The position numbers and the translations under genes were made by a program. A stretch of 64,000 bases of DNA from Malus domestica (Eukaryota; Streptophyta; Magnoliopsida; Rosales; Rosaceae): NCBI RefSeq assembly GCF_042453785.1, contig NC_091665.1, forward strand, positions 24,457,501 through 24,521,500, given 5' to 3'. The notes beneath the pieces were generated by a model. The model had not been told where the DNA came from. It did no database searches and saw nothing but the letters and a program-made list of their open reading frames with translations. How positions within the stretch are numbered: the stretch's first letter is position 1; each line of letters begins with the position of its first letter. Below are positions 7,301 through 62,900 of the stretch, in pieces.

Positions 7301-7984
7301 TTTTGTAGGACAAATTCAAATTGCTATTAGATATCATGCAGTAGGCAGTGCATATTGATACGGTGGAGCATTCAACTGGGTTTCTATAACCCAAATTTTC
7401 GGACTTTATAATTAGGCCAAGTAAATTTATCTGTATTGGTTCTTGTACTGTTAGACAGGAATATCACTCTATTATGTGCACAGTCGTCAGAATCAACATT
7501 TTCCGGTGTGCCTCCTGTCTTTGATGAATAACTGACCTATAAGTTTTAGCTGTATTTTAACATCGGGTTCGTGGGGGAGAAAGAACCGCTGTTCTTATAT
7601 TTTAACTTCAGGTTTATTTGCCCTTCTTATTACATCTTGCTCACAAGTCAGAGTCTATGGAAACTCTCTCCTTTACGGAAGAGAATTTGACTTTTGTTTC
7701 CCAACCTCATGCAGGGAAGTGCAAAAAGGCTGATAAAAACCGCCCTGCAAGAAGCAGCAAAAAAGAGAGAGATGAGGTATTCGGACTTGAAGAAGATTGA
7801 CCGTGGGGTTCGCCGCCATTTCCACGATGACATAACTGTGATCGTCGTGTTTCTTGACTCAAACCTTGTGAGCAAGGCTAGTTCTGTCAAGTGCCCGAAC
7901 CTATCGGTGAGAGGAGGTGGAATCAACCTGCCTCCTAACACTCTTGCTCCATATGCCACGACAACGGAAGCTGGCAATACCTGA
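4400..7984 (+). CDS. Protein phosphatase 2C, plant clade D (PP2C.D)
   Basis: Coding exons are 4400-4718, 5264-5631, 6411-6647 and 7715-7984; phases agree at every GT-AG junction and give 397 aa. The Mg/Mn-dependent Ser/Thr phosphatase fold is complete: DGHGG (86-90), GDSRAVLG (168-175), ASDGLWEH with metal-binding Asp-Gly (about 287-288), and FHDDITV with the C-terminal Asp pair (about 346-347). The N-terminus [17 protein letters not shown] and the QDGLLWYKD block are typical of Arabidopsis clade D members (PP2C46/PP2C79 type), which are known to dephosphorylate plasma-membrane H+-ATPase and to be inhibited by SAUR proteins. That role is family knowledge, not visible here. Start: ATG codons at 4388 and 4393 lie in other frames, and the 4400 ATG gives the conserved N-terminus. 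Length is normal and no break was seen. Confidence 0.95.
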
Positions 7985-8452
7985 GTAAACGGTATCTCTC
8001 ATGTGTGTTATCTATTGTACCATTGTCTTGTGTTAATACTAGGTAGCTTCCGAACCAAGACAATTTACGAGGAGGAGCCGGCCTTCAATTCTTTAATGTA
8101 CACTGTAACTTTTAACTGGGAATCTAATACTTGCATTTAGCTTCTGTGTCAACAACGGACAAGAACTGGAGAAGACAAGAAGGTGACAGTAATCACAGCT
8201 ATATTTCCTTCACAATGTTCTTATCCTTTCCTTTTTTTCTTTTCTTTTTTTTCACTTTCCGCTGGAATTTCAGATCTGTAAATTTGTACGACATGGCGAA
8301 TTAAGTTTTTTTGCTTTCATTTAGTTGTTTGCTTGCTCTTTTTATTTGTTAAGTCTACGTATCATAATATAAGTGAAGAAATTATATATCTTTCAACAGA
8401 GTACGAAAAGCTTTCTACAAACCCAGGAAGCTGAATATGAGGTGAAGACTAA
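7985..8452 (+). other. PP2C 3' UTR and downstream DNA
   Basis: This follows the TGA stop at 7982-7984 and contains T-rich tracts, with a T-rich stretch near 8230-8260. The transcript end was not located exactly. A MITE begins at 8453. Confidence 0.45.
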
Positions 8453-8803
8453 GGGCTGGTTTGGTATTATTGTGTTTTGAAAAAAAGCTGCTGTGAGAAT
8501 AAGCGGCTGAAATAAATCAGCAAGGTGTTTGGTAAACATTTTTGTAAAAGTGCTTTTGAAAAAAAAAGCAGTCTGATAGTGGGTCTTTTCATTAAAAAAG
8601 CACTGTAGCTCTGTGTGCTTTGAAAAAAAACCAGTTTTCCAAAGTTGCAAATAGCAGCTTTAGTTTTTTCCTTTGATTTTAGCTTATTCTCACAGCAGCT
8701 TTCAAAATAAGCCATTTTTTTTTTAGTTTATCAAACATCTAAAACCATCATAGCTTTTTTTCATGCGTGTTTTTTTTTTAAGCATCCCATTCCCAAACCA
8801 CCC
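8453..8803. mobile_element. MITE with TAA target duplication (copy 1)
   Basis: The 351-bp segment starts GGGCTGGTTTGG and ends CCAAACCACCC, so its ends are inverted repeats. It is flanked by TAA on both sides (8450-8452, 8804-8806), as for PIF/Harbinger-type MITEs. The sequence is rich in AAAAGC/GCTTTT blocks and has an inner inverted repeat (GCTGCTGTGAGAATAAGC and its complement). A second copy in the opposite orientation is at 25641-25992. Confidence 0.75.
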
Positions 8804-8806
8804 TAA

Positions 8807-9654
8807 CCAAGAAATTTTTAACAATATAAGGGTTAAAGCTTAAAAAAGGTTGATAGAATAAAGAGAAGCGAAGACTGCACCGCAACAAGAGAGATGGAGA
8901 GGAAAATGAGGCCAACTCAAAATAGAAAAGAGTTTGATTCGAGAACACCGTTGAATTGTAAGGATTTAAACTGACATACAACAATATCTATGAAGACAGC
9001 ATAAAGAAAAAACAAGAAGATGGGCCAAGGATCATTTAGATCCCTCAAAGGTTCTGCCCATGCATGGTGTACCGTATTGTGTGACTAAAATTCTCTCCAT
9101 GAACATATGGTTTTGAAATATGATGAAAGCATCTGTGCCTACCATGTACCTGTGAATTGTTGTTTTCTTCATAAAACTGTGATAAAACCATAATCTGCAA
9201 TGCAAGCGCTGTGAGTTTCTGGTTGTATGTAGCTGCCATGGCCTGGCATATACAAATACAAATATACAGCTATCATGCAATAATACATGTAATCCAAATC
9301 AAAATCTAATAAGGTCCTACAAGAATTTTCAAAATTAAATATTGGAAAAAAGAGAAGTAGGGAATTACGAGGAGGGAGGGAGAGAGAGAGAGAGGGAGTG
9401 TGTGTTTTTACTGTCGCACTTGTCACTTGCCTGACACCATCGGGCATATTCCCACCAACTCAGATACGAAACAACACTTAATTAGTTTAACCTAATTACC
9501 AACTAATTATTTTAATTTTGTACTGTAATCTAAGTTATCTAAACCCTAGACATAGGCACAGAACCCAATGCCACTGTTCCTAATGCCCTTTTGGATTGAT
9601 GTCTCACTCCATCTCTGAAATTGTGTGAGTCAGGTTTCAAACATTTCATTGACA
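8807..9654. other. Intergenic DNA with a short GA tract
   Basis: No gene was seen. A purine-rich (GA)n tract lies at about 9370-9398. ORFs here are short and lack family features. Confidence 0.5.
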
Positions 9655-9664
9655 TAAAAAAGAA

Positions 9665-9817
9665 GGGAACTTTAACGAAAAGCACTCGGTATTGTTCACT
9701 TTAACGAAAAACCACATTTTTACACTAAAAAGTCAATCCTGGTACTATTCACTTTACCCTTTATTTTGTCCTTATCATTAAAACTTAAAGTTTTCAAGCC
9801 ATTTTCATTAGTTTTCC
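9665..9817. mobile_element. MITE with 10-bp target duplication
   Basis: The 153-bp AT-rich segment has imperfect inverted ends (GGGAACTTTAACGAAAA and the complement of TTTTCATTAGTTTTCC). It is flanked by TAAAAAAGAA on both sides (9655-9664 and 9818-9827). The 9-10-bp duplication suggests a Mutator-type MITE. The A-rich duplication could in part be chance. Confidence 0.65.
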
Positions 9818-9827
9818 TAAAAAAGAA

Positions 9828-10498
9828 AGGTTTATTATATTAGCACCCTACAAATTATTGAATAAACCTAATATATTTAATACATCTCATATTTACTTTT
9901 TTAACTAAAAATTATCTCAATACACCCCTTCCTTCCCCATAATACCCTCATACCTCACATTCTTAATATACACCCCACATTTCTCAAATCTTATAACAGT
10001 CATTTTTAATTTTGCCGAATGATTTCAAACCATCTAAACTTTAATTTGCCGAATGATTTCAAATTGAATGATTTGAAAAAATGTTTAGGTTCATTTGAAT
10101 GTTTTTCAATAACAATAATAATGATTTCAAAGCTTTCGAAACACCAATTTCGTGTTCCATTCGTCAAAAATAATTTTTCTTAATCAACATATTTGTAGTT
10201 TCATTGCTTAGAGTTTTATTCAACAATGGAGGGTGTGAAGGGTTTTGATAGTTGAAGGAGATAAATAATACGTTAAAAGTTAATTTTATTATTATTTTTT
10301 AAACCTAATAAGGTCAAAATTATCATTGCATAGTAGAGTAAATAAGTCATTAATATTAAATTTTAATGTGAGGTGCATTCAACATTTTGTGGAGTGCTAA
10401 TATAAAATGCTAAAAAGAAATACGAAAATACTATTTCTTGAATTTATACCTTATCATGTTACGGACATACTATTTTTTGAAGAATAATATTACGAGGT
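9828..10498. other. AT-rich intergenic DNA
   Basis: No gene, RNA or clear element ends were seen. Confidence 0.5.
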
Positions 10499-10507
10499 CA
10501 AGTTTTT

Positions 10508-10708
10508 GGACAAGGATTGTCTGCCCTCCTTGTTCCCGTGCCCTCCTGTTTGTGTGGTCACTGTTAAGCCACGTCAACATTTTATATTACTATTCATTTT
10601 TGTCTTATTATCTCTATAAAAAAAACAATATAAAATGTTGACGTGGCTTAACCGTTACCATACAAAACAGGAGGGCACGGGAACAAGGAGAGCAGACAAT
10701 CCTTGTCC
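10508..10708. mobile_element. Mutator-type MITE with long inverted repeats
   Basis: The 201-bp element is almost entirely palindromic. About 80 bp at each end, starting GGACAAGGATTGTCTGC, are inverse complements with few mismatches, around a short AT-rich loop. It is flanked by a perfect 9-bp duplication CAAGTTTTT (10499-10507 and 10709-10717), the size made by Mutator-like transposases. It would fold into a strong hairpin if transcribed. Confidence 0.88.
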
Positions 10709-10717
10709 CAAGTTTTT

Positions 10718-11240
10718 AAATCAAATTTATAAATCAAATGATGTGTTACCAATAGACATGTTAATTAACACTTAAATGAGAATTTAATAATCAATAACCA
10801 TATCATTTTGTTTAAAAATTTGATCTTCATAGCATTATCCATTTCTCAAATATGACTTATCGTAATGAGCTGGTTGCTTGGATAATCATGTTATGAACGT
10901 ACTATGTTTCAAATTTATATCTTATTAGTTTCAATTTGGTCATCAAAATAAATTATTGGACCCAATAGTCCTATACATCCACTCAGTTAAGAGCTCTAAA
11001 TAATGAGATTAGTTAATTCTTTGGAAATCCTAATATAGATAGCAGTAGTATTGACTCTAAAATTAACTTGGTCGGAAACTCCGTTAATGCGCTGGCGTGG
11101 ATGTGAGTATAAAAAACTCATAATGCTTGTCACACATAATCTAGTTAATGTTTAGACCAGATTTATTCATGGCAAGACACTAGACACCACTGTACGTCCA
11201 TGATTTTCATTTTTATGAATAAAAAATGTCCAGTCTGTGA
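10718..11240. other. AT-rich intergenic DNA
   Basis: No gene or recognisable element was seen. Confidence 0.5.
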
Positions 11241-11242
11241 TT

Positions 11243-11400
11243 AAGGTTTGGGTGTGATATTCACACCCTTTTTTACTTCTCTCACACATTTTTAATTTTT
11301 AACCGTCGTATCGGATGAATTGAAGAAGATCAACAGACATAAATTAACTAGGGATATGGAAGAAGTAAAAAGAGATGTGTGGATAGCACACCCCTAAGGT
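11243..11400. mobile_element. Fold-back MITE-like repeat (GTGTG..ACTTCT family)
   Basis: The left end (AAGGTTTGGGTGTG..., then CACACCC and TTTACTTCT) and the right end are imperfect inverse complements over about 45 bp. The same layout occurs at 25114-25250, including the inner motif TTGAAGAAGATCAA. No coding. Confidence 0.6.
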
Positions 11401-11487
11401 TTTAGGATGCTTCCAACTCTAGGGCAAACTCTGAGGTAGTCCCTAGATCCTTGGCTCTCATTCTCACTGTGAATAGTTATATTATTA

Positions 11488-12371
11488 GGGTGCGTTTGTT
11501 GCACCGGACTATCTCAGACTGGACTAGCTTCAGGGACTAAGCTGGACTGGCTTAGACTAGACTAAGCTGGACTAACTTAGTGAAGCGTTTGGTGCAGTGT
11601 CGGACTAAAAAGAAGGATAATAGCAAACTACAATATTATATTTTTTAATTCATATCTAATAATATTATATTAATTAATTCTACCTTTTTTATTCTAATAA
11701 AACTCTCCCTCTCTATGTGGAAGCCTCATCCTTTTCTCCCTCTTTATCTCCCTCGTTCTCTCCGTCCCACTCTCTCCTTCCTGCCCTCTTTTTTTCCGAT
11801 TAATTGCCAAATTTTTTTTCTGCAAAACGAAGAATCGAGCTTGGTTTTTCAGGTTTTTGTTCGGTGCAAGATTACAACTGGAGAGAGCTTTCCAAGTCCG
11901 TGGATTCAATCGGAGCCGCAAGCCTGTGGAGCGGCGGAACCAGCCTGCAAGAATGCCTGGCAAGCTATCCGGCAACGAGTCGGGGTTTGTGGAGTCGGGG
12001 AAGTGAGAGAAGGCGATGGCTTGGATTTCTTGGATTCGTTTCCGTCAAACCCAAAATTGCAGATTTGGAGATCTTATGAGATGAAGAAGAGGGAGGAGGA
12101 GAGAGAGAGAGTCAGAGAAAGGGACCGCAAGTTGTCGTTCAAGCCTGGGGTGAAGCGAAGCAACATGAGGTGAAGAGAAGAACAGAAGCGGGACTACAAA
12201 TCCCCTCGTTTTTGGTGGCTCTCGCTAAGCCCACCTAGCGAAGGATTTAGTCGGCACGAGTCCGGCTTAATCCCATTAAACACAATCCCAATTTACACCA
12301 AACACAGGACTACTAATTCTAGCTTAGTAGTCCAGTCCAGTGAAACTTAAGCCGGCCAAACAAACGTGCCC
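11488..12371. mobile_element. Non-autonomous TIR element with TTA duplication
   Basis: The 884-bp segment begins GGGTGCGTTTGTT and ends with the inverse, AACAAACGTGCCC, flanked by TTA on both sides (11485-11487, 12372-12374). Subterminal regions repeat GGACTA/TAGTCC and AAGCTGGACT-like motifs in both orientations, as transposase-binding arrays often do. The GC-rich middle (about 11700-12180) is open in more than one frame but encodes nothing recognised. TTA duplication and short ends fit a PIF/Harbinger-type element; no transposase is present. Confidence 0.75.
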
Positions 12372-12374
12372 TTA

Positions 12375-13731
12375 GTGAATAATGGAAGAATATTGTTAAC
12401 ATTTACCATAACTAAACTTGAAATGCCAAAATAAACTACGTATCAATATCCATTTATTAAAAGAATGTCTTAAGTTCAACTCTTTTGATAGAATATGAAT
12501 ATATTTATAGTAAGTTTAATAGCTAATTATCTAATTTGATGTACACAAGAGGGTCAATCAAAAAAAAAAAAAAGAAAAAAGAAAAAAAAGAAAAAAAGAG
12601 GGTCAATCGTCAATCTAATGATTATGTTCCGAGTAAGTACGAATTTTGAAGAGTCATGTAAGCTAGTATTTCAAACAAACATGTAAATATGGGTAATTGC
12701 GAATTATTATCATGTTTTGCGGTTTCTTTTTATAGTTTATAAAGTGTGAACATTTACAAATGTCACTTCATGTGGTACATTTGGACCAATCAAATGGTGC
12801 AGCAGACTATTTGAAGCGAGATCAGTCCAAATGTGCCACTAAATATGCAAGTGAACCACATCATTTTGACGTGCTCATTATTCAATACATTAGTGTATTG
12901 TAAAACGACTAACCAATTTATTCAAAACTCAATCATTCACTCGTGATAAAATATGTGCGGGAGAAAGTTCCCAACTCTCCAACCATTACCATTCTAATTA
13001 TTAGCCCATTTATCTAAAACTCAATCATTCACTCGTGAAAAAACATACGCGGAAGAGACCGAGAGAGTTTCTAACTCTTACCATTCTTTCTTTTTAATTT
13101 ATTTTTTGTTTCAAGAAAGCATTTGAAGTAGTTTCAATGGTGACCTGCAAAGTTCATGTGGAATTCAGATCAGATGTGGCAGGGTGTACTCATTGCACAA
13201 ACTAATGGTACCACCTTATGGACCAAACAGGAACTTCCTTTTCTTTTATGTCACAACACTTTCAAATCCTTGCAAAATCCAAGTGCAATAGATTTCACTT
13301 CCAAGGGGTATATTTGTCTTTAACAGAAAGACAATGACAGTTGAGATTTTCACCACCTAAAATCCCCATGCATTGCTTAATTCAGATTTCATTCGTGCCA
13401 ATTAAAACTCTAATTCAACTACCTCTTAACTTTGATCCTTGCGCAAGTAAATATCAAGGTTCTAAAAGACATTAGGTGCTGATCAAGCGGTGGGTTGGGG
13501 TCTAGTCCAGATTTAAGTAAATTTATTATATTTCGTGTAAATAAGTGTCAGTTTATACTTAAACTATATATAGACTACAAAATAGAATGACATATATATT
13601 ATGAAGTATTAGAACATAATAAAAATATAGATAACAAACATATAATGTGTGTTCATTTTAGTATTCAACAAGTTTCTTTCAATTTATTGAAAAAAATAAT
13701 AATATGCAAAATGAAATTTATCTATATTTTG
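12375..13731. other. Intergenic DNA with A/G low-complexity tract and a 92-bp duplication
   Basis: A poly-A/AAAG tract lies at about 12560-12600. A ~90-bp block containing AATCATTCACTCGTGA is present twice (from about 12925 and from about 13017, offset 92 bp). No gene was seen. Confidence 0.55.
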
Positions 13732-25640: not shown

Positions 25641-25992
25641 GGGGTGGTTTGGGAGTTAGATGCTTAAAAAAAAACACCCATGAAAAAAAGCTTAGAAGGT
25701 TTTAGGTGTTTGGTAAACTGAAAAAAAATGGCTTATTTTGGAAGCTGCTGTGAGAATAAGCTGAAATCAAAGGAAAAAGCTGAAGTAGCTATTTGCAGCT
25801 TTGGAAAACTAGCTTTTTTTCAAAGCACACATAGCTTCAGTGCTCCTTTAATGAAAAGACCCACTATCAGACTGTTTTTTTCTTTCAAAAGCACTTTTAC
25901 AAAAAAGTTTACCAAACACTCTGCTGATTTATTTCATAGCCGCTTATTCTCACAGCAGCTTTTTTTCAAAGCACAACAATACCAAACCAGCC
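25641..25992. mobile_element. MITE, copy 2 (opposite orientation to 8453-8803)
   Basis: The ~352-bp segment starts GGGGTGGTTTGGGAG and ends ATACCAAACCAGCC. It is the reverse complement of the MITE at 8453-8803 over essentially its full length, with many point differences and small gaps. No clean target duplication was seen. Confidence 0.75.
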
Positions 25993-31163: not shown

Positions 31164-31681
31164 TGTTGATGCACAAAACCGGAGGTCTTGGAACAACAGA
31201 AAGTGTCAGGTTTTGTGACCTTCGCTTGGTTGCTTGGTTGCTTCAGTCACTAGTGAGGATAAGTACGTAAATGAATAGAGACAGAGAAGCAAACACAGGA
31301 TGTACGTGGTTCACCCAGATTGGCTACGTCCACGGAGTAGAGGAGTTCTTATTAGTAGTGAAGGGCTTACACAAGTACAAAGGATCAAGCTCTCAATTTA
31401 GTGAGTTCTTGTGAATGATTTAACACAAAATGGCATTAGGCAATATTGTGGGGGAATGACCCCTATTTATAGAAAAACTTGTAGCTTTGTCACATTGACA
31501 TGTGTCATGTTGTGATTGGTTCTTGATGTCGACACGTGCTGCGCTCTGATTGGCTTCTAATCTTGACACGTGTCGAGTAGTGATTGGCCTCCTGGTCGGA
31601 GGGGAACTCTTCTGGGTCCTTGACAGTATAGCGTTGGCCGGTGCTCGGTAGTTTCGGGATTGGTCAAGTATGGTACAAACA
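31164..31681 (-). repeat. 3' LTR of the Tat element
   Basis: It is 518 bp and, by reading line against line, identical to 45914-46431. It begins TGTTGATGCAC and ends GGTACAAACA on the plus strand. Confidence 0.95.
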
Positions 31682-31694
31682 GTGTTCCCCTAAG
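31682..31694 (-). promoter_or_regulatory. Probable polypurine tract
   Basis: On the minus strand the bases just before the 3' LTR read TTAGGGGAACAC. This is the purine-rich stretch expected for plus-strand priming at this exact place. Confidence 0.55.
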
Positions 31695-33857: not shown

Positions 33858-34532
33858 ATGTCTGGACCCTCCGACCGTCGTTTTGACTTGAACCTTGGAG
33901 AAGAGACAGCCACGCCTTCTCCAGACAACATATGGCGCCCATCCTTCATATCCCCTACTGGTCCTCTTACCGTTGGGGATTCTGTGATGAAGAATGATAT
34001 GACCGCTGCAGTGGTGGCCAGGAACCTTCTCACTCCCAAAGATAACAGACTACTTTCCAAACGGTCTGATGAGTTGGCTGTTAAGGACTCTCTGGCTCTT
34101 AGTGTTCAGTGTGCAGGTTCTGTGTCTAATATGGCCCAACGCCTATTTGCTAGAACCCGCCAAGTTGAATCATTAGCTGCTGAAGTGATGAGTCTCAAAC
34201 AGGAGATTAGAGGGCTCAAGCATGAGAATAAGCAGTTGCACCGGCTCGCCCATGACTATGCTACAAACATGAAGAGGAAACTTGACCAGATGAAGGAATC
34301 TGATGGTAAGGTTTTACTTGATCATCAGCGGTTTGTGGGTTTGTTCCAAAGGCATTTATTGCCTTCGTCCTCTAGGGTTGTACCTGGTAATGAAGCTTCA
34401 AATGATGAACCTCCAATGCCTCCTCCTTCTGGGGTTTTGTCAAGTACTGAGGCTCCGGATAACCACCCTCCGGTGCTTTCTCTTTCTGGGGCTCTACCGA
34501 CTGCTGAGACTTCCCCTAAGCAACCTTTGTGA
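33858..34532 (+). CDS. Antisense ORF of the Tat element, 224-aa coiled-coil protein
   Basis: A single-exon frame runs from ATG 33858 to TGA 34530-34532, on the strand opposite gag-pol. It starts MSGPSDRRFDLNLGEE. A predicted coiled coil lies in the middle (about 100-145: RQVESLAAEVMSLKQEI and following heptads). The tail is Pro/Ser-rich with imperfect repeats of the form PP.SG.L...EA. No enzyme motif is visible. It has a possible TATA box upstream and AATAAATAA-like sequence at about 34600, so it may be an independent transcription unit. I know such antisense genes in some Tat-lineage elements; the function is unknown. Confidence 0.7.
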   Translation: MSGPSDRRFDLNLGEETATPSPDNIWRPSFISPTGPLTVGDSVMKNDMTAAVVARNLLTPKDNRLLSKRSDELAVKDSLALSVQCAGSVSNMAQRLFARTRQVESLAAEVMSLKQEIRGLKHENKQLHRLAHDYATNMKRKLDQMKESDGKVLLDHQRFVGLFQRHLLPSSSRVVPGNEASNDEPPMPPPSGVLSSTEAPDNHPPVLSLSGALPTAETSPKQPL

Positions 34533-35920: not shown

Positions 35921-36212
35921 AGCTCCATTGGAGAGAAGCAGCAGCTGCAAAAATTTGATAGAGAAAAGGAGGCGAAGCTTTGTTGGATTTCTAGGCTGGG
36001 GAAGATTCCAGTTTTTGTAGCAACTTCAGTACTGGTGAATTGCTTGTATTTTTGTCCATAACGAAATTTTGGACTTTGAATTATTATTTGATCTATCATA
36101 ATATGTTTGGGAACATATATAAGTGAATAAATAAGAAGGAAGATTTTGGGCCCTTGTGGGTGTAAAACAAAAAATGTTTAGGTTTTGTGAACAAAATTTG
36201 TTTATTTGGAGC

Positions 36213-36902
36213 AAGGTTTTGTGTTGAAGCTTTGTAGGTGAAGCTTTGGTGTTGAAGCTTTCTAGGTGAAGCTTTGATGGTGAAGCTTTGATGGTGAAAG
36301 TATGTAGATGAAGCTTTCTAGGTGAAGCTTTTTTAGGTGAAGCTTTGTAGGTGAAGCTTTTTTAAGTGAAGCTTTGGGCCCTTGTGAAGCTTTGGAGGTG
36401 AAGCTTTTCGGGTGAAGCTTTTTTGGGTGAAGCTTTGTGGGTGAAGCTTTTTAGGGGAAGCTTTGTGGGTGAAGCTTTGGAGGTGAAGCTTTTCGGGTGA
36501 AGCTTTTTTTGGGTGAAGCTTTGTGGGTGAAGCTTTTTAGGGGAAGCTTTGGTGTTGAAGCTTTCTAGGTGAAGCTTTGATGGTGAAGCTTTGTAGATGA
36601 AGCTTTGTAGATGAAGCTTTCTAGGTGAAGCTTTGATGGTGAAGCTTTGTAGGTGAAGCTTTTTTAAGTGAAGCTTTGGGCCCTTGTGAAGCTTTGGAGG
36701 TGAAGCTTTTCGGGTGAAGCTTTTTTGGGTGAAGCTTTGTGGGTGAAGCTTTTTAGGGGAAGCTTTGTGGGTGAAGCTTTGGAGGTGAAGCTTTTCGGGT
36801 GAAGTTTTTTTTTGGTGAAGCTTTGTGGGTGAAGCTTTTTAGGGGAAGCTTTGTGGGTGAAGCTTTGGAGGTGAAGCTTTTCGGGTGAAGCTTTTTGGAT
36901 GA

Positions 36903-36911
<9 letters not shown>
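36213..36911. repeat. GGTGAAGCTTTG minisatellite with 302-bp higher-order period
   Basis: About 45 tandem copies of a 14-17-bp unit centred on GTGAAGCTTT occur, each with an AAGCTT (HindIII) site. Variant order repeats at a larger scale: the block from GGGCCCTTGTGAAGC at 36376 recurs at 36678, 302 bp on, with the same succession of variants. A run of T (about 36907-36935) closes the array. The minus-strand frame through it (Lys/Ser/Phe-rich) is a by-product of the repeat. Confidence 0.92.
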
Positions 36912-36936
<25 letters not shown>

Positions 36937-37109
36937 GCGCTTGACACGGTCTTCATTTGCTTGTTTTGTAGTGACTGTGGAAGACGGATTGCTTTCTGAT
37001 TGAGAAGGGTTCCGGCATCGCTTTGCACCATCTTCATGTGGGTAATATAGGAACTTCCTTATGTTTTGATCATGCATGTAGTGATAGAATTTGTTTCTTC
37101 TTATTGTAG

Positions 37110-39396
37110 ATGTCAGAGCCTGGAAGTTCTAGTGATGAGGGCTCTTCTAGCTTTAGCTCTAAGTCTGAGTCTGCAATGTCGGAGTCTTCAGGGTCTTTGT
37201 TAGAGTCCGGTACTAGAGAAACATTGGATGATCTTCCCAACCGTCAAACTTTAGCTATTGCTAGTTCTTCCTCCATGGCGTTGGGTGAGGGGGTTGTTTT
37301 TGATGCCATACCCATAGTTCGCTCTGAGTTCACAGCAGACCATCTAAAGAATAACTTGTTAGATAATGAGAAGCAGGTTGAGGCGCTAAGGCAGTCATGT
37401 AATATCCCTCGTAGTGTAGGGATACGTTTGGTACATGATGAAGAATGGCCTTCTGAGCCTCCCCAGGGTCATGTTATGTTCTACACCCAGATATTACTGA
37501 CTTTAGGGGTGAGACTACCTTTACATCCGTGGTTGCAAAAGATGTTATCTTTGATCGGATATGCACCTGGGCAACTCAATCCTGGTTTCTGGGATACTTT
37601 GATTGGATTTTATATCATTTGGATGGAGTGTGGGTTGTGTGAGCCTTCCTTCCATCAGTGGCGTTACTGTTACAAGATGCGCCCAGCAAAATCATGCACT
37701 GGTTATGCCGAGTGTGCATGTCGGAGTGAGAGAGAGCGTATTGTGTATGGTAAGAAAAAGGCATACTACACATGGAAAAACCGTTGGTGCTTTCTGTATA
37801 ATGATTGGGAGTATGATAAGGGTGTCACGCCTGAGCGACGTGTGCTTACTCACTTCCAGACTGTAGGTTGTAACGTATCAACCGTTCGTACTATTTGCTA
37901 TTTGTTGTGGTCTTTTCTTGCTTCTAACACTTTGCTTCATGTAGTGACGCGGGGCACCATCCAACTGTTTGGGCAGGAGCTATCTGACATAGAGAAGGTG
38001 TTGAGGGTGCCCAAAGAGGATAGACACTTAAGCAAGCTACGACCCTTATTTCGTCGGTACGGTTTCCAACCCTTAGTTTCCGAGAGCCAGGGACGATCGA
38101 GTAAGTTGTATCCTTCATGTAAACTTAGCTCAATTCCTTACTTTATTTGGAAAGTTGTATTTCTTATTTTGATTTTCCTTATGCAGTGGAGAAGGTAAGC
38201 AAGAAAACAGGGACTAGCACCCATAAAAGGAAAGCACCAGTGTTAGTTCCTTCGGAAGACATCCTACCGCATAAGAAAATTCATAAGTTCCGAGGGGAAC
38301 CATCCGTTAGACCTAAGTCCCAAGATGTGGTCCTTAAGGGGCCTGCCTTTAGGAAGACTGGAGTCAAGGCCGTTGATAATGCTGCTGCCGTAGTTGCAGG
38401 AGAAGGGAGCCGACTGTTGCCTCATCCTCTTACTATGGAGCACACTGTCCAGGAAAGTGATCCTGGTTCCCGCCATGAGGGGAAAGGCAAGGAAAGAGCT
38501 GGCAGTGTCCCGTGGAAGGACTTGAGGGTTGCCACGAGGCCAAAGGATTTTGGGGATATCAACAATTGCTTGGCAGGGCGTCGATTCGCCTTCGATGAGC
38601 TCGGAGAGCCCTTAGCTAAGGATGAATCGGATTGCGACCGGATGTTGAAGCTGTCTTCATATGTGAGTGTTACTTTGTCATTTCCTTACTTTTTCCTCTT
38701 TATTATCATTATTTAGGTAGTGATGATCGTCTTGCCATGCAGGTCATGGCCGAGTATCACGACAGACTGCAAGAGGTTGAGCGGTACAAGGCAAAACTGA
38801 AGGAGAATAAGCAGCTTGTGGACGAGGCCCGGAGGAATAAGGGACTTTTGACTCAGGCCCTCCAACTGAAGGACGAAACCATGGAGAGCTTGAAAAGGCG
38901 AAATGGTGAGAACCTAAGGCTTAAGAAATTGTTTGAGGCAACTAAAAAACAGTTGGAGGTGGCTACCTTGGAAGTATCCAAGGTTAGGGGAGAATTGGAT
39001 GGTGCCTTAGTTGAGATTTCTGAACTGGAGAAGAGCATTCCAACTGAAAGGGAGGCTGCTGTGCAAGAATACTTAAGTTCTTCGACCTTTCATCTTGCTA
39101 TTAAACCCTACTGTGCTCAAGAAGCTCGCTTTGAAAAAAGGAAATGGATGGCCGTCCTTGATCGTTATGATGATGGGAGCATTCTTCGAAAATACCACGA
39201 AGATATAGATGAGCATCATCGAAAGGGCGAGACATTTGTCCTTGCTGTTGATCCTAGCAGCGAAGATGAGTCTGATAATGAAGGTAGTGCTGATGCACAG
39301 ACTCAGCATGGTGAAGAGGATCTTGGGGATGCAGAGGATGATGGTAGGACGCGGAGTGATACTGCCAGGGGTTCGGCTTCAGATGAGAATGAATAG
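37110..39396 (+). CDS. Antisense spliced gene of the Tat element (putative gypsy-type transposon domain)
   Basis: Exons 37110-38100, 38187-38662 and 38743-39396 join in phase across GT-AG introns (A|GTAAGT...TATGCAG, TAT|GTGAGT...CATGCAG) to 706 aa. The strand is opposite to gag-pol. Residues 1-60 are Ser-rich; residues about 70-330 form the conserved domain that databases call putative gypsy-type transposon domain (marks: LLTLGVRLPLHPW, GYAPGQLNPGFWDTL, WKNRWCFLYND). A Lys-rich linker follows, then a long coiled coil (about 490-640) and an acidic C-terminus. A TTATTGTAG acceptor directly precedes the ATG, so an upstream untranslated exon is likely. The role is unknown; similar antisense genes occur in some Tat elements. 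The intact frame after splicing argues that the gene has been under selection in the family. Confidence 0.8.
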
Positions 39397-39797: not shown

Positions 39798-42700
39798 CTA
39801 TTTGTAGTAGTACTTCAAGTGATCAGCGTTCCATGGATGGCCAAGGGTCTTGCCATCGGAGCTTCTAAGTGTGTAAGAGCCAGGGCGACTGATGCCAATG
39901 ACTTCATACGGTCCATCCCAGTTTGGACTAAGTGTGCCTTCACTCGGGACTCTGTCGCAGAGTAATCTTTTCTTTAAGACCCAGTCTCCTATTTTGAAAG
40001 AACGAAGCTTGACCCTAGAGTCATAATAGTTGGAGATGCGCTGCTTGTAGGCGACATTCCTCAAGTGAGCTTGGTTTCTGTGTTCCTCGACTAAATCCAA
40101 GTTGAGGGTGAGTTGTTTGTCATTTTCACTTTGAATGTAGTTCTGGACTCGGAATGTTGCTTGCTCGAGCTCAACAGGGACAACCGCCTCTGTGCCAAAG
40201 GCAAGTGAGAATGGAGTTTCTCCTGTTGAAGTCCGATATGAAGTGCGATATGACCAAAGAACTTGGGGTACAAATTCTGGCCAACAGCCTTTAGCTTTGT
40301 CCAAGCTGGTTTTCAAAGTGCGCTTGATTATTTTGTTGATGGCCTCAACTTGTCCATTAGACTGGGGATGAGCTGGAGAGGCAAAGCATAAGCTGATGTT
40401 GAACTTAGAGCAGAACAACCTGAACTTCTTGTTGTCAAACTGTCGCCCATTGTCAGTGACTATCGCATTGGGAATGCCGAATCTACAAAGGATGTTCTTC
40501 CACACGAAGTCTTCTATCTTTGCCTCAGTAATGGTTGCCAAGGGTTCTACTTCGGCCCACTTTGTGAAGTAGTCCACTGCAACGACTGCGTAACAGACTT
40601 TGCCCTTCCCTGCCGGCATTGGGCCGATCAAATCAAGTCCCCACTGGGCGAAGGGCCAAGGGCTGATCATAGGAGTAAGAGGCTCTGGAGGGGAATGAGG
40701 AATAGTTGCATATCGTTGACATTTGTCACATGAGCGGGATACTTTGATGGCATCCTGGTGGAGTGTTGGCCAGTAATATCCTTGGCGAAAAGTCTTGTGT
40801 GCTAGGGACCGAGATCCAGCATGATCTCCACAGACTCCCTCATGTATTTCCCGAAGGACGATTTCCGCCTCGGCAGGCGTAAGACACCTTAAGTATGGCA
40901 GGCTAAAACCTCGCTTATAGAGTTGATCATTGATGATCAGGTAGCGGGTAGACTTGTATCGAATTTGCTTAGCCTGGACTTTATCATTTGGGAGGGTGCC
41001 ATGAGCAAGGAAATTATAGATCGGGGTGATCCAACTATCCCCCTGTTGTAAGTTGCATACTTCTGCGGCCATGGTGCTTGGTGTGGCCAACAGTTCGACA
41101 TGAATTTTTCTTCCAATCTTGTCTTCCACAGCTGAGGCGAGGCGAGCCAGGGCGTCTGCATGACTGTTTGCCGCTCGAGGAACTTGGGTGATCTGGTAGT
41201 GGAAGTGCTTGAGCAAAAGTTGTGTTTGCGCAAGATATGCTGCCATGGAGCTGTCCTTAGCATCAAAGTTGTTGGTAACCTGGTTGACCACTAATTGGGA
41301 GTCACTGAAAATATCAATTTGTTTAACCCCGAGGTGTTTGGCCAAACGTAATCCTGCTAGAAGGGCTTCATACTCGGCCTCATTGTTTGATGCCTTGAAT
41401 TTGAAACGAAGAGCATACTCCATTGCTACTTTGTCGGGCGTAGTCAAGACTAGTCCCGCTCCACAGCCCTGTTGGTTGGATGAGCCATCAACATACAGAC
41501 TCCATGCTGAGGTCGTTGATTCTACCTTCTGAGCTTCCGGGGGTAATGAAGCCACTGCTTCAGGTGTAGAAGCAATGTCAACCGGATATGTGAAGTCGGC
41601 AATGAAATCTGCTACTGCTTGACCTTTTTCGGCTGGTTTTGGTTGGTAGGAGATGTCAAACTCACCCAATGCTATCGCCCATTTGATCATTCGCCCAGAC
41701 GTGTCAGGACTCTGGAGTATCTGTCAAAGAGGGTGATTGGTAAGCACGATGATGGCGTGTGCTTGGAAATAAGGGCGAAGTTTCCGAGCAGACATGACCA
41801 ATGCTAGAGCTAATTTCTCAATGTTGGAGTATCGTGTCTCCGCATCTTGTAGGGCTTTGCTAGCGTAGTAGACAGGTTGCTCAATATTCCCATCCTTTCG
41901 AATGAGAACGGAACTTACGGCTGAAGCTGATACCGATAGGTAGATAATGAGAATGTCTCCTACCTCGGGCTTGGAGAGTAGAGGGGCTTTACTCATGTAC
42001 TCCTTGAGGTTTTTGAATGCCTCGGCACATTCATCAGTCCATGTAATGTACTTCCTACTTCCCTTAAGTGCTTTAAAAAAGGGAGCACATTTGTCTGTGG
42101 CCTTAGAAATGAACCTGGTTAAGGCTGCCACCTTGCCAGTAAGGCTCTGGATGTCCTTTGAAGTTACCGGTTCCTTCATGTCGAGGATTGCTTTGATCTT
42201 CTCGGGATTAGCTTCAATGCCTCGTTGGCTAATCATGAAACCTAAGAATTTGCCAGAGCCTACGCCGAAGGCACATTTGTTGGGGTTTAACCTCATTCGA
42301 TACCTCTTCAAAATAGTGAAAGTTTCAGATAGGTTGGTGATGTGTTGGTCAGCATGTTTGCTCTTGACTAACATATCATCAACGTAAACTTCCATGCTCT
42401 TCCCAATCTGCTCGGCGAACATTGAGTTGACTAGTCTCTGATAAGTCGCTCCTGCATTCTTTAGGCCGAAAGGCATGACTTTATAGCAGTATAGTCCTCT
42501 GTCGGTAGTGAAGGCTGTGTGTTCTTGATCCGAAGGGTTCATGAGGATTTGGTTGTATCCTGAGTAAGCATCCATGAAGCTCAGGAGTTCACACCCGGCC
42601 GTAGAGTCTATAAGTCTGTCAATAAGAGGAAGAGGGAAGCTATCTTTCGGACACCCTTTGTTTAGGTCGGTGTAGTTAACACACATTCTCCACAAGACCT

Positions 42701-45700
42701 TTTGAAGCAAAAGACTTTCTTTGGTCGGATTTTTCTTAACAAGGACCACATTTGCTACCCATGTCGGGTAATTGACTTCGCGGACAAAGCCTATGCCTTT
42801 GAGTTTTTCAACTTCTGCTTTCATTGCCTCGTATCGTTCAGCGTCATAAGATCTTCGCTTCTGTCTCACCGGCTTGATCTTGGGGTCAATACTCAAACGA
42901 TGACAGATGACATCGGGAGAGATGCCTGGCATGTCCTCGTATGACCAGGCGAAGACTTCAGTGTTCTCTTTCAAAAAAGATATCAATGCTAACCGAAGGG
43001 GTGGTGACAATGTGGTGCCAATCTTCACCATGCGATCTGGATAATCTCTTGAGATAGGTACCTTCTCCAACTCTTCAGCAGGTTGGGCTTGCTGGGTGAA
43101 AGAGTCATCTCGAGGATCATCGGGTTGATTGTTGCTATCAGGAAGATCCAAGTTCGCTTCATCTAAGCTGGTCTTTGTGACTTGGTCATGTACAGACAGG
43201 GTTTCCTTGGGTCCGGGCAAGTGTTGTTGCTTAACTGAAGTGTTGTAACATGATCGTGCACTAAGCTGATCTCCTCTGATGTAGCCGTTGCCATGGGGGG
43301 TTGGAAATTTCATCAACAGCATATGCGTGGATACCATAGCCTTGAGATCATTGATGCCTGTGCGCCCAAAGATGACATTGTATGCCGTTGGGCAGTCAAC
43401 CACTAGGAAGTTAGTGGTAATGGTAGCCGTGTAAGGGCCTGTACCAATAGTAAAGGGTAAATGTATGCTCCCTAAGGGTTGCACGATATCACCGGAGAAG
43501 CTTATCAGAGGAGAAATCGAGCGATCGAGCAAGTGTTCAGCTACACTGAGCGCCCTGAAAGCTTCGGCAAACATGATATTGACCGAAGCCCCTGTGTCTA
43601 CGAGGATTCGTCGAACATCAAAGTTGGCTATGTGAGCCTCCACGATCAATGGGTCGTTATGAGGGTAGATGATGCCTCTTTCTTCCTCAGGGTAGAAACA
43701 TATCGGATCCCAGTTAGGTTTTTGATACTTCCCTCCCCTGATGTCTTCCACGTGAAACACTTGGTGACCAGGCCTCAGACTTCGTTCACTGTTTTTCATG
43801 GCCCTATTGGAAGATTCAGATATGGGTGTGCCGCCGCTTATGGAATATATGACATTCACCTGGCGTTGGTTACGGTTATCCCTTTGAGGGTGAAGAAGGA
43901 ATTGATCAATTTTTCCTTCTCGTGCCAAAGCTTCAATACGATCACGGAGGATGATACATTTCTCGCTATCATGGCCGTTATGCTCATGGTAGCAACAAAA
44001 CGTGCCCGCGTTATTCGGGGGCGTGTAATCTGGGTGCCTCGGCTTTGGTTTTGGTATCAGGTGAGCTATGCTGGGGTAAATGGCCGCGCATGTGGCATTC
44101 AAGGGCGTGTATGTCTCATACCTTGGGGTAGGGGGTATCTTGACGCGGGTTTGACCCACTGCATTGACTGCCTGGGGGCGAGCGTTATTGTGGCGATACC
44201 CTTGGTTATCGGGATAGTGTCCCTTACTCTTTTTACTGAAAGGAGAGTGGTGAGGATGGAAATCCTTCCTCTTGCCTTGAAATTGATATGTCTGTTGATT
44301 CGGTGAAGCATTATGCAAGGCATGGGGAGGTGCCACTGCTGTTTGGGAAGTCGAGGTCTTCTCATTTAGGTGAGTCTGGCTTCCACCTCCCACTTGTTGA
44401 TAAAGGATGGTTGTAGGGGGTTTCTCCTGATATGTCTTTGCCTCGGCGGAGGCATGGTTATAAGCCTGCGCCATCACCTCAGAGTAAGTCTTCCAAGTAT
44501 TGGCATTGATCATGTATTTAAAGAAACAATCACGTAGGCCTGCCGTGAAGGCTTTGAGGGCAGTCTTGTCATCTGCTTCGGCACACCGGGAGTATTCATG
44601 GCTGAAGCGGCCAGCATACATACGTAATGACTCGTCTGGCTTCTGGCGGATAGTGTACAAGTCATCTGCAGAGTGCAAGCGATCGGTTTGGAAAATGTGT
44701 TGGGAAACAAATAGTTTCCTCAATTCCTCAAATGAGTCTACCGTCTCAGGTGTAAGACGACAATACCAATTTAGAGCTGCACCAGAGAGGGTGGAGGGGA
44801 AGAGAAGACATCGCTCTTCGTCGGTGTGCATCCGGTATGCCATGGTGGACTCAAAGAGGTTAAGGTGCTCAATCGGGTCCTCTTTTCCAGTATAAAGTTG
44901 CAAGCCAAGCTTTTGCTTTGTCTTTGCTTGAAGGGGGGTGTTGAGGATCCTCCTTGTAAGAGGGCCAGGCCTGGGTTGGTTCCAGTCAGGTATTTCAGCC
45001 TGACGTTCAGCCTTCAACTTGTTTACTTCCTCAAGAAGTTGTAGGACAAGGGGGTCCTGAGCGGAGTTATGTGTCACTGGAGCTTTCTTTCGTAAATCTC
45101 CATCTCCTCTTGGAATTAGGAAGGTTTGATCAAGGACATGTGATTTTTCCCTGGACTCGCTGTACTGGCTTCCAGGGTATGTCTGTCGGAACACCTCTGA
45201 GTCCCCTGTACCCTCATGTCTCTCTGGGACTTGTTGCCCCTTCCCCAAATTGGTGGCCGGCTTGGGCCGTGGCAGGGGACCGAGTCTCTCAGAAATCCTT
45301 GGGTCATTAATCTTTGAGCTTATATGGATGGAATTCTCTCGACGTTGCTTCAGGAAATCCCGACAATCGCGAAAGACGGCTTTCGATCCTTCTGCCCCTT
45401 CAGTAAAGAGGTGTCTCCCTCCACTTCTCATGGTTCGGGTTGAAGCAACTGGGTTAAGAGAAGCCTCATGTTGATTATCAAGTCGAGGGGTAATCTGTTC
45501 CCTATCAGGGATATCTATGTCGAATGCATGTGACCCTCCATGTTGGAGGGCACCCAGTTGATGGTTGACTTCCACGGGGGCAACAAGCTCGCGTGTCTGA
45601 GCTTGCCTAGCTTCGTGGAGTGTCTCGAAGAGCTTCTCATATTGCTCCTGGAGGACCTCATTCTTCATTGCTATCTTGTTGTTCTGAGCTTCCAACTCAT

Positions 45701-45806
45701 CGACTTTAGCTTGAAGAAGAACTCGTTTTCCTTCCTTCTTTCGTTGTTTCGCACTATGTGCAAGGGGGGTGTCATTCTGTGTGCTGTGGCTTCCTTCGCT
45801 TCCCAT
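39798..45806 (-). pseudogene. gag-pol polyprotein of the Tat element, one in-frame stop
   Basis: From ATG 45806 the minus-strand frame is 2,003 codons to the stop at 39798, interrupted only by TGA at 41726-41724. In order: N-terminal coiled coil; Gag core (about 44.9-44.4 kb); Cys/His cluster (about 43.97 kb); aspartic protease motif DTGAS (about 43.6 kb); reverse transcriptase with YVDD (about 42.38 kb); RT-linked RNase H; the TGA; a second RNase H (YVDGSS, about 41.49 kb); integrase with H..H..C..C and the acidic triad region (from VDYFTKW, about 40.57 kb). There is no chromodomain. The frame is unbroken upstream to 45926, but the MGSEG start is preferred. The single stop would remove the second RNase H and integrase unless read through. 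Confidence 0.92.
41724..41726 (-). other. Single premature TGA in pol
   Basis: The frame reads ...AAT CAC CCT CTT TGA CAG ATA CTC... and is open on both sides in the same frame. Related elements usually have an arginine here, so a C-to-T change at a methylated CpG is a likely cause (inference). Confidence 0.9.
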
Positions 45807-45900
45807 GTTGGAGAGGGATGCCTGGTCAAAAGAAAGTGTACGAATGATAGAAACCAGCTTGACACAGCTGAAGAGAGTAGGAATAAGTGTCGTTTCCCAC

Positions 45901-45911
45901 AGACGGCGCCA
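45901..45911 (-). promoter_or_regulatory. Primer-binding site (TGGCGCCG type)
   Basis: The minus strand reads TGGCGCCGTCT two bases inside the 5' LTR. The first eight bases match the complement of the 3' end of plant tRNA-Asp; the match beyond is weaker, so the primer tRNA is uncertain. Confidence 0.75.
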
Positions 45912-45913
45912 AA

Positions 45914-46431
45914 TGTTGATGCACAAAACCGGAGGTCTTGGAACAACAGAAAGTGTCAGGTTTTGTGACCTTCGCTTGGTTGCTTGGTTGCTTCAGTCAC
46001 TAGTGAGGATAAGTACGTAAATGAATAGAGACAGAGAAGCAAACACAGGATGTACGTGGTTCACCCAGATTGGCTACGTCCACGGAGTAGAGGAGTTCTT
46101 ATTAGTAGTGAAGGGCTTACACAAGTACAAAGGATCAAGCTCTCAATTTAGTGAGTTCTTGTGAATGATTTAACACAAAATGGCATTAGGCAATATTGTG
46201 GGGGAATGACCCCTATTTATAGAAAAACTTGTAGCTTTGTCACATTGACATGTGTCATGTTGTGATTGGTTCTTGATGTCGACACGTGCTGCGCTCTGAT
46301 TGGCTTCTAATCTTGACACGTGTCGAGTAGTGATTGGCCTCCTGGTCGGAGGGGAACTCTTCTGGGTCCTTGACAGTATAGCGTTGGCCGGTGCTCGGTA
46401 GTTTCGGGATTGGTCAAGTATGGTACAAACA
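45914..46431 (-). repeat. 5' LTR of the Tat element
   Basis: It is 518 bp, apparently identical to 31164-31681, and adjoins the primer-binding site. It is followed by the GTACT duplication. Confidence 0.95.
46213..46222 (-). promoter_or_regulatory. LTR TATA box
   Basis: The minus strand reads CTATAAATAG, a consensus plant TATA box, in the sense orientation of gag-pol. Transcription would start about 30 bp further (near 46185). The same box is at 31463-31472 in the other LTR. Confidence 0.75.
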
Positions 46432-46436
46432 GTACT

Positions 46437-60517: not shown

Positions 60518-61098
60518 TAAGAATCCTTCCTATTTTTATTTATTTTTTGTTTCCAAAATCCCCTAATGTCATTTGTTGCCAAAATTATATGAACTTCCAA
60601 GTTTTTAGATTTTGATAGGGTGAGAAGCAAATAGGGGTACAACTCGAATGTGTTAGGCGAGTTGGATGGTCAACCCAACCTTGGATGGTCAACCCAACCT
60701 TAACCCAACTTTCATAATTTGAGTTCAGGTTGGGTTCGGGTTCATGCGAGTTCAGTCGAGTTCGGATTTCATTGTGTTCAGGTTTATTTGGTTGGGTTTG
60801 GGTTAGCCCAACTTTATTGAGTTTAATCTTATAACACCTTATTTTGGATGATTTTTCAAATTTTGAACCAAACAACGTTAATATTAGTTAAAATTGCATT
60901 CACATTATCATGCATGCAAAAGTTAAAACAAACAATTTGTACTATTTCTAATGTTTCAACCATGCAAAATAGAAATTAAATTAAAAGACATATACCAAAA
61001 CTTCAACCAAAAGAAATGCAAAATTAACTCTATTATCTATATGAAAACTAACAATAAACATCAAGTATAGTCATTCCAAAACTTATACATAACTTATA

Positions 61099-62549
61099 GG
61101 GTAAATATTAGTTTACTACCCTTAAGTTTCTTGGTTTTAAACATTTGGTACATCAAGTTTTTTTTTGTCCCAGAGTCATACCTAAAGTGTTAATTTTGGG
61201 ACAGTCTCATACATCTGTTAGTCAAACTGTTAACTCTGCCATTAACTGATGATGTGGCTCTTATGTGGACAATGACTGGATGTCACGTGTCATTAAGGGA
61301 TCCACGTGGAAATTAAAAATTCAAAAAAATAATTATTTAAAGAAAAGTTAAAAAAAAGAAGGCAAAACCCATATCGTCTTCCCCAAATCCCCTCGTGCCC
61401 ACCCTCCCACCCACACCCATATCTTATTGTTGACCCGTGTCCCCCTCCCTAACCCAAACCTTCCTTCACCACCCTACTCTCGCGGTCCTAGGTGACGCAG
61501 AGGGTCAGGACTCCCTCTATCTCTCTCTCTCTCCCCGAACCTTCTTTTTCTTCTCCCAACACAGAAAGCCATGATCTCCCTTCCTCCTGCTTCACCGGCG
61601 CTGCTCCCCTCCCAGCTTTCTCTCGAACCCTCTAATCTAATCCAACGACCAACCCCTCTTTCTTTTCTCCCTCTCTGCTCGTCCCTTGTGCTCGCCACCA
61701 GCGCTGGCACCATCGGCCTGAGTTCGCACTCGATTTGTTCGAGCTTGCCCATCATATCGTACGATGGGCTCTTCCAAGCCGTCGAGATGCCAAAGGGGTC
61801 GAAGAGGACTCTGAATTGGTCCCCGTCTCTGTCTTGAGCGTTGGTGAATTGAACGGTGAGGCTGTCGAGGAAGAGGAAAGGTTTCTCGAGAGGGTTTCAT
61901 GGCTTGAACGACGTTGTACGATCTGCGATTACATTTAGGGATTATTATAGATTATTGAGATTAGGAGATGAATTGATGTGGAAATTTTGAGATGATTAGG
62001 AAATTGGGATTAAGAAAATACAAATGATGGTTTTGGGGGAAGAAAAGGCAAGCTGCTAGAGTGGGCACACTGTAGATTAGGGTTTGGTGGGTTGGATGGG
62101 TGGAGTCGAAGATGGAGAGGGAAGATGGAGGGGGAAGGGTGGGTGGATGGGTGGAGTCGAAGATGAAGGGGGAATGGTGGATGTATGATGAGTCGAAAAG
62201 GAGAGAAAGGTTTGGTGGGTTGGTGCGGGGAAGAAAATGGAGGGATAAGGGAGGAAGAAGATATCGTTGGAGAGAATGGAGGGATAAGAGAGGAAGAAGA
62301 TGTTGGGGGAGGTAGAAAAGGACCAATTTTTTTTTTTTTTGAATAATGGATGTATGAGACACGTGGCGCCCAGTCATTGTCCACATGAGTGCCACATCAT
62401 CAGTTAACGAGAGATTTAACAGTTTGACTAACAGATGTATGAGACTGTCCCAAAATTAACACTTTAGGTATGACTATGGGACTAAAAAAACTTGATGTAC
62501 CAAATGTTGAAAACCACGAAACATGAGGGTAGTAAACTGATATTTACCC
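61099..62549. mobile_element. Mutator-like element with ~200-bp terminal inverted repeats, Pack-MULE candidate
   Basis: The 1,451-bp element starts GGGTAAATATTAGTTTACTACCC and ends with its inverse; the left mark GGGTAAATATTAGTTTAC suffices to find it. Inverted similarity extends about 200 bp inward, including AAAATTAACACTTTAGGTATGA on the right and its complement on the left. A perfect 9-bp duplication TAACTTATA (61090-61098, 62550-62558) is the Mutator signature. No transposase is present. The middle (about 61470-61900) is GC-rich and coding-like on the minus strand. A second block (62100-62320) is purine-rich with GGGTGGATGG-type repeats. Confidence 0.85.
61474..61896 (-). pseudogene. Coding-like segment carried inside the MULE
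   Basis: A minus-strand frame is open for 141 codons, from just after a TGA at 61899-61897 to a stop at 61474. Its first ~75 codons have ordinary protein composition (for example DRDGDQFRVLFDPFGIST and MMGKLEQIECELRPMV), unlike the surrounding repeats, and then it turns into Arg/Glu/Gly-rich sequence. I do not recognise the parent gene. It is probably a captured exon fragment. Confidence 0.5.
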
Positions 62550-62900
62550 TAACTTATATAATATGAAGTGGTATGGGTGATATGTACATGAGCGAATTCA
62601 AGCTCAAAATCAGGTTAGGTTTGGGTTGACATGGGTAGGCAAGATATCAGCCCAACCCAACCCAACAAATGATCAGTTTGAAGTCGAGTTGGGTTTTGGC
62701 CGATTTTTTCTTTATTCTAACCCACCTAATCAGATTTATAATCAAGTTGGGAATGGACAAATTCGGGTTGACTCAACTCAAGTTGCACCCCTAGATGCAA
62801 AACACTCGGGACACTAGGTTTCACTTTTCAAATGGCACTTTAGGAATAAGCCTTTTTGAAAAATGAAACGATTCAAATTGTTTTGTATTTTTATTTTTTT

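What the first reader, a model, noticed from the sequence alone, without database searches (positions are those of the whole stretch)
37110..39396. Spliced, intact gene running antisense to gag-pol inside the retrotransposon
Three exons with clean GT-AG introns give an open 706-aa protein on the strand opposite gag-pol. In the genomic sense RNA these introns read as CT-AC and would not be removed, so the gene could keep its introns through each replication cycle. The protein has a putative gypsy-type transposon domain plus a long coiled coil and an acidic tail, and its job in the element is unknown. It is the strongest candidate here for an under-described system.
Basis: partly seen in the sequence, partly recalled or inferred. 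Interest (0 to 1): 0.75.

Follow-up and report, generated by a model that had tools for sequence, protein, structure and literature searches.

The report
Spliced antisense gene in apple-type retrotransposon
A recently inserted plant jumping element, most likely in apple or a close relative, carries on its reverse strand a multi-intron gene for an accessory protein of a kind already known from such elements; the intron structure, which ORF-based surveys would miss, is the new part.

Summary
Inside a 15.3-kb Ty3/gypsy element (identical 518-bp LTRs, target duplication AGTAC) a gene runs antisense to gag-pol. The two reported introns (38101-38186, 38663-38742) recur in apple/pear gene models (64 of 97 and 75 of 78 spanning models). 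The product is more likely 680 or 668 aa than 706. All four introns are T-rich (0.44-0.48; coding exons 0.22-0.31).

The element looks like the Retand lineage, whose antisense Transposase_28 (TRP28) ORF is published (Vicient 2025: 97% of clusters). Kind and position are known; the papers I could read mention no introns in it. A second antisense ORF (33858-34532) lies upstream.

Conservation is uneven (TRP28 88%, linker 54% identity to a sister protein), as for a constrained protein. Expression, dN/dS and function were not testable; the genome search did not complete. Best guess: a nuclear regulatory accessory protein made from its own promoter.

The parts
31164..31681 (-). 3' LTR (518 bp), identical to the 5' LTR
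   Evidence: blastn block 31164-31683 = 45914-46433, 100% over 520 bp; trimmed by 2 bp on the flanks and the 5-bp AGTAC duplication
45914..46431 (-). 5' LTR (518 bp), followed on the - strand by a PBS-like TGGCGCCGTCTGTGGGAA (primer type not tested)
41724..45992 (-). gag, RT and first RNase H (stop-to-stop frame; ends at an in-frame TGA inside the RNase H match)
   Evidence: Pfam Retrotrans_gag, RVT_1, RT_RNaseH_2, RT_RNaseH
39798..41723 (-). second RNase H (aRH) and integrase, same frame as the preceding ORF after the TGA
   Evidence: Pfam RVT_3/RNase_H, Integrase_H2C2, rve
36116..36122 (+). TATATAA, candidate TATA box of the antisense gene (inference)
   Evidence: pattern scan
36225..36908 (+). 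14-nt tandem array (about 48 copies), upstream of the gene and possibly in its leader
   Evidence: Tandem Repeats Finder
   Evidence: 18 of 167 models join ...HHLQ to MSE/MLE; sequence; T 0.44
37110..37866 (+). coding exon 1 with the TRP28-like domain (residues 130-191)
   Evidence: 0 of 51 models with both sides keep it; T 0.46
37945..38100 (+). coding exon 2
38101..38186 (+). intron c, 86 nt, GTAAGT...ATGCAG
   Evidence: this junction in 64 of 97 models with both sides; T 0.48
38187..38662 (+). coding exon 3 (with the variable linker)
38663..38742 (+). intron d, 80 nt, GTGAGT...ATGCAG
   Evidence: this junction in 75 of 78 models with both sides; T 0.47
38743..39396 (+). coding exon 4: coiled coil and acidic tail, stop TAG
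33858..34532 (+). second antisense ORF, 224 aa (MSGPSDRRFDLN...), with AATAAA at 34600
   Evidence: joined to TRP28-gene sequence in 14 of 16 length-selected models

Best explanation
It is the antisense accessory (TRP28-like) gene of a young Retand-type Ty3/gypsy element, built like an ordinary plant gene: probably its own promoter near the 14-nt repeats, a leader intron, four coding exons and a 668-680-aa product. Shown from sequence: intact frame, splice-site signals, homologous gene models with the same junctions, uneven conservation. Inferred: because the gene is on the strand opposite to the genomic RNA, the host spliceosome sees CT...AC in the RNA that is copied and the introns are carried through each cycle; only the antisense mRNA is spliced and translated. 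Also inferred: the protein oligomerises through its coiled coil, enters the nucleus, and its TRP28 region binds nucleic acid to tune transcription, RNA export or integration of its own family, as proposed for such proteins. Rough likelihoods: identity and spliced structure about 0.85; nuclear regulatory role about 0.4.
For: Frame and junctions; ORF length against shuffles; junction c in 64 of 97 and d in 75 of 78 models with both sides; leader junction in 18 of 167; extra intron in 51 of 51; intron T 0.44-0.48 against coding exons 0.22-0.31; TRP28 region 66/75 identical against linker 58/107 versus sister protein P0108, Fisher p 9e-7, similar for P0107 and P0129; P0091, a cluster of 297 member sequences of a 668-aa form; identical LTRs and target duplication; second RNase H between RH and integrase, which Neumann 2019 gives for Ogre and Retand (PMC6317226, passages); antisense TRP28 in 97% of Retand clusters (PMC11963269); Grande gene23 with own promoter and nuclear product (as told in PMC7264820).
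Against: Gene models are predictions, many from one pipeline per genome, so they are not independent proof of splicing. They disagree: the added intron is 78, 114 or another length, 23 of 97 use another donor before intron c, and many models are truncated or scrambled. The TRP28 match is below the Pfam cut-off in all 8 proteins whose score was shown. AlphaFold models are poor (mean pLDDT 51.0 and 51.9), with no fold lead. The two regions compared for conservation were chosen after seeing the table; the end of exon 3 (43/49) and the coiled coil (73/106) are also well conserved. The presumed leader stretch 36150-37037 is itself T-rich (0.39), so T content does not separate the leader intron well. 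No expression or DNA-level selection data.
Confidence: 0.6

Rival explanations
1. The antisense transcript, not the protein, is what matters: it pairs with the 3' part of the genomic RNA and restrains the element (or feeds siRNA), while the reading frame is inherited.
For: The gene lies between pol and the 3' LTR, so any antisense RNA is complementary to the genomic RNA. PMC7264820 discusses this possibility.
Against: An RNA role does not need an open frame, in-phase introns, or a TRP28 region conserved far above the linker.
Confidence: 0.15
2. One larger antisense gene: the 224-aa ORF at 33858-34532 is the first coding part, spliced over the repeats to the TRP28 exons.
For: 14 of 16 models returned by a length-selected search contain both parts: 12 named Pyrus, 2 Malus baccata.
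Against: The search admitted only long proteins, so it was biased to fusions. The 224-aa ORF has its own stop and an AATAAA at 34600. The abundant 668-aa class starts at the TRP28 ATG. Gene finders often merge neighbours (recalled).
Confidence: 0.12
3. The three-exon, 706-aa model of the first reader is right and the extra segment is coding (or an optional, exitron-like intron).
For: The segment is open and in frame in this copy.
Against: 0 of 51 models keep it; P0006, P0010 and P0011 end within about 25 residues of entering it; T content 0.46.
Confidence: 0.07
4. A host gene caught by the element (transduction), now decaying.
For: It has introns, as host genes do.
Against: The frame is intact and one related cluster alone has 297 members. 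Vicient 2025 finds no similarity to TRP28 outside transposable elements.
Confidence: 0.03

Closest known systems
Retand-lineage antisense TRP28 ORFs (Vicient 2025, PMC11963269; parts 1-3 of 5 of the text read)
   Same: Antisense, between pol and 3' LTR, TRP28 domain, tandem repeats often in the same region, identical LTRs, LTR length in range (315-1,194 bp).
   Different: The survey used ORF Finder, and a term search found no 'intron' or 'splicing' in its main text. Internal region here about 14.2 kb and pol-3'LTR region about 8.1 kb, above its ranges (7,380-12,869 and 2,933-6,566 bp). Malus and Pyrus are not named in its main text; its supplements were not seen.
Maize Grande gene23 (described in PMC7264820, parts 1-2 of 3 read; the original 2013 paper is not held)
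   Same: Antisense accessory gene between pol and 3' LTR, own promoter, nuclear protein.
   Different: No sequence comparison could be made here; whether gene23 has introns I could not check.
Bean pvRetro ORF2 (Gao 2014, PMC4093653; passages only)
   Same: 15 Ty3-gypsy families with an ORF opposite to pol, 211-939 aa in the table rows seen, similar to each other, some with an SMC match.
   Different: The word 'intron' does not occur in the main text (term search).
Ogre elements (Neumann 2019, PMC6317226, passages; also PMC12786077, passages)
   Same: Tat clade; second RNase H between RH and integrase; use of an intron. PMC12786077 says plant LTR elements generally lack introns, with Ogre and EVADE among the notable exceptions.
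   Different: The Ogre intron is in the sense polyprotein region; a plant mobile domain is found in 57% of Ogre elements.

Membership tests
Retand lineage (Tat, Ty3/gypsy) | Ty3/gypsy gag-pol with second RNase H (aRH) between RH and INT | tested here: met
   Pfam order RVT_1, RT_RNaseH, RVT_3, H2C2, rve on the - strand; criterion from PMC6317226 passages; shared with Ogre
Retand lineage (Tat, Ty3/gypsy) | RT clusters with Retand in a phylogeny | not tested
   no named reference RT sequences were fetched
Retand lineage (Tat, Ty3/gypsy) | Antisense TRP28 ORF between pol and 3' LTR | tested here: met
   position and strand; the domain match itself is below the cut-off, see below
Retand lineage (Tat, Ty3/gypsy) | Published size ranges (LTR 315-1,194; internal 7.4-12.9 kb; pol-3'LTR 2.9-6.6 kb) | tested here: inconclusive
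   LTR 518 bp in range; internal about 14.2 kb and pol-3'LTR about 8.1 kb out of range; a range, not a definition
Pfam PF04195 Transposase_28 | Score at or above the gathering cut-off (26.2 bits) | tested here: not met
   window 21.4 bits, E 3e-4; P0160 23.3, P0161 22.8, P0010 22.7, P0077 22.3, P0091 20.1, P0016 20.0, P0108 19.5; so a TRP28-like relative, not a formal member
Pfam PF04195 Transposase_28 | Match over nearly the whole profile | tested here: met
   profile positions 7-68 of 69; 10 of 12 members of A1 match at E 0.01
Ogre lineage | Extra ORF upstream of gag | tested here: not met
   the gag frame begins at the edge of the 5' LTR and no other - strand ORF of 150 aa or more lies there; shorter ORFs were not listed. 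That Ogre carries it there is recalled

The most novel reading that the evidence does not exclude
TRP28 accessory genes of Retand elements are in general multi-intron genes on the antisense strand, preserved because the spliceosome cannot read them in the genomic RNA. ORF-based surveys have therefore cut them into pieces, which would explain the TRP28 ORFs under 600 nt in some published clusters and the domain's detection in only 23% of Retand elements in another survey. Splicing would then work as a strand check: only the antisense mRNA can make the protein.
Probability: 0.35. Interest if true: 0.55.

Novelty: new variant of a known kind. Interest (0 to 1): 0.4.

Why it matters
LTR retrotransposons copy themselves through RNA and are expected to lose introns from any gene read in the sense direction. 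A conserved, multi-intron gene kept on the other strand shows how an element can carry a host-style gene for many cycles, and it gives an exon map with which to clone and test the protein, whose function is still given as unknown in the surveys read here.

Tried and rejected

Other DNA copies: scans of viral contigs and of bacterial/archaeal genome contigs confirmed no relative; the tool says that records of the window's own genome may be left out. Without DNA of sibling copies dN/dS could not be computed; regional protein conservation was used instead, which is weaker.

A first count of junctions (60 of 65 and 69 of 71) used narrow patterns that left out models with another upstream donor; it was replaced by the wider count. 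A hydrophobic stretch in the 706-aa model (residues 261-279) falls in the segment now read as an intron, so an envelope- or membrane-like role was dropped.

Papers: ten searches. Gomez-Orte 2013, the Steinbauerova paper on extra ORFs and PMC2596294 are not held. So I cannot say that introns in antisense ORFs are unreported, only that 'intron' does not occur in the main texts of PMC11963269 and PMC4093653, that the listing counts 0 'introns' in PMC7264820, and that nothing I opened describes them.

Full report
The element. Two identical blocks (31164-31683 and 45914-46433, 520 bp, 100%) reduce to 518-bp LTRs flanked by the 5-bp duplication AGTAC, so the insertion is young. On the - strand the frame 45992-39798 carries gag, RT, RNase H, a second RNase H, zinc-binding and integrase core matches. 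It is interrupted by one in-frame TGA at 41726-41724, inside the first RNase H match; whether that is special to this copy was not tested. The second RNase H between RH and integrase is the mark that Neumann 2019 gives for Ogre and Retand (PMC6317226, passages). No separate - strand ORF of 150 aa or more lies between the 5' LTR and gag. Together with an antisense TRP28-like ORF after pol this points to Retand; I did not make an RT tree. The internal region (about 14.2 kb) and pol-3'LTR region (about 8.1 kb) exceed the ranges that Vicient 2025 gives.

The gene. The longest ATG ORF of the region (362 codons) is far above 1000 shuffles (maximum 154). Searches with exon 1 (90 proteins of 1999 candidates), with the joined protein (119 of 7992 scored) and with residues 1-170 of one pear model (16 of 370) gave 167 distinct proteins: 4 named Prunus, 5 unnamed, the rest Malus or Pyrus. 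The host is thus most likely apple or a close relative (inference from 92-94% protein identity to many Malus models).

Correction of the exon map. Among 162 proteins, 49 could be read across this place by pattern: 17 skip the segment whole (114 nt, 37863-37976), 16 keep VVTRG/VVTQG..., which fits a 78-nt intron 37867-37944, 11 begin IFLHA, and 5 differ. Two more, P0096 and P0113, also lack the segment. So 0 of 51 keep it. Models of Malus sylvestris with LOC names (P0016, P0108) are of the 78-nt type. Three proteins (P0006, P0010, P0011) enter the segment and end within about 25 residues; P0006 lies on a 1.3-kb record, so its end may be the record's, but P0011 lies on a 312-kb contig. The T content of the 78-nt stretch is 0.46, like the other introns (0.44, 0.48, 0.47) and unlike the coding exons (0.22-0.31); the 114-nt form has 0.38 and the presumed leader stretch 0.39. 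The ATG at 37110 is directly preceded by TTGTAG, and 18 of 167 models join a leader exon ending HHLQ to this ATG; in the window this gives a 72-nt intron 37038-37109. So the gene has at least one leader exon, four coding exons and four introns; the product is 680 aa, or 668 aa for the 114-nt form.

Junctions c and d. Protein junctions alone cannot tell a spliced intron from an absent one. But residues of intron c are kept in P0054, P0055, P0056, P0073, P0090 and P0165, and of the end of intron d in P0035, P0074, P0122, P0147 and P0152, so these copies hold the introns. Where a value was printed for the joined protein they are 43-61% identical to it; for P0165 the pieces were 54-69%. That is what one expects if the introns have passed through many cycles. 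The models remain predictions; no RNA read was seen.

Constraint. Against the sister protein P0108 the TRP28 stretch (residues 121-195) is 66 of 75 identical and the linker 58 of 107 (Fisher p 9e-7); P0107 and P0129 give 2e-6 and 4e-6. The Prunus proteins P0160 and P0161 give 35/74 against 23/76 (p 0.04) and 35/74 against 23/103 (p 6e-4). The two regions were picked after seeing the table. This fits purifying selection on the domain but is not a dN/dS test.

Function. Exon 4 is predicted as part of a long helix (residues 453-522 of P0001) with block confidence up to 90, the rest is mostly poor; the last 60 residues hold 19 acidic and 5 basic residues. Vicient 2025 predicts DNA binding for TRP28 and suggests a regulatory role; Vicient and Casacuberta 2020 report nuclear localisation and an own promoter for Grande GENE23. 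By analogy I favour a nuclear, nucleic-acid-binding accessory protein made from its own promoter. The TATATAA at 36116 is a candidate only. The antisense mRNA would be complementary to the genomic RNA, so an RNA effect may exist besides the protein.

Second antisense ORF. 33858-34532 encodes 224 aa; it has AATAAA at 34600 and a TATA-like stretch near 33737 seen by eye. 14 of 16 long models fuse it to TRP28-gene sequence, but the search admitted only long proteins. I leave open whether it is a separate gene.

Novelty. Antisense TRP28 ORFs in this position are known. A 2025 review says plant LTR elements generally lack introns, with Ogre and EVADE among the exceptions (PMC12786077, passages). 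The multi-intron antisense structure is not mentioned in what I could read; key older papers are not held. I therefore file it as a new variant of a known kind, of moderate interest. The recount of junction c lowered its support (64 of 97 in place of 60 of 65); I left the odds as they were, because the 23 other models still place an intron there, with another donor.

Noticed in passing
33858-34532 (+): A second intact antisense ORF (224 aa) in the same element, with relatives in apple and pear models, some fused by the models to the TRP28 gene.
   Followed up: partly
43476-44306 (+): A 276-aa stop-to-stop frame antisense to gag; by eye, the tail of the pear model P0158 resembles its start.
   Followed up: no
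36906-36935: A run of 30 T at the end of the 14-nt repeat array; in the sense RNA this is an internal A30 tract.
   Followed up: no
41724-41726 (-): In-frame TGA interrupts the pol frame within the first RNase H match although the LTRs are identical.
   Followed up: no
8508-8722 and 25721-25936: Long inverted repeat arms (169 nt at 90% and 60 nt at 93%), about 17 kb apart.
   Followed up: no
61097-62551: Inverted repeat arms (133 and 68 nt, 92-93%) about 1.1-1.3 kb apart, possibly a small DNA transposon.
   Followed up: no
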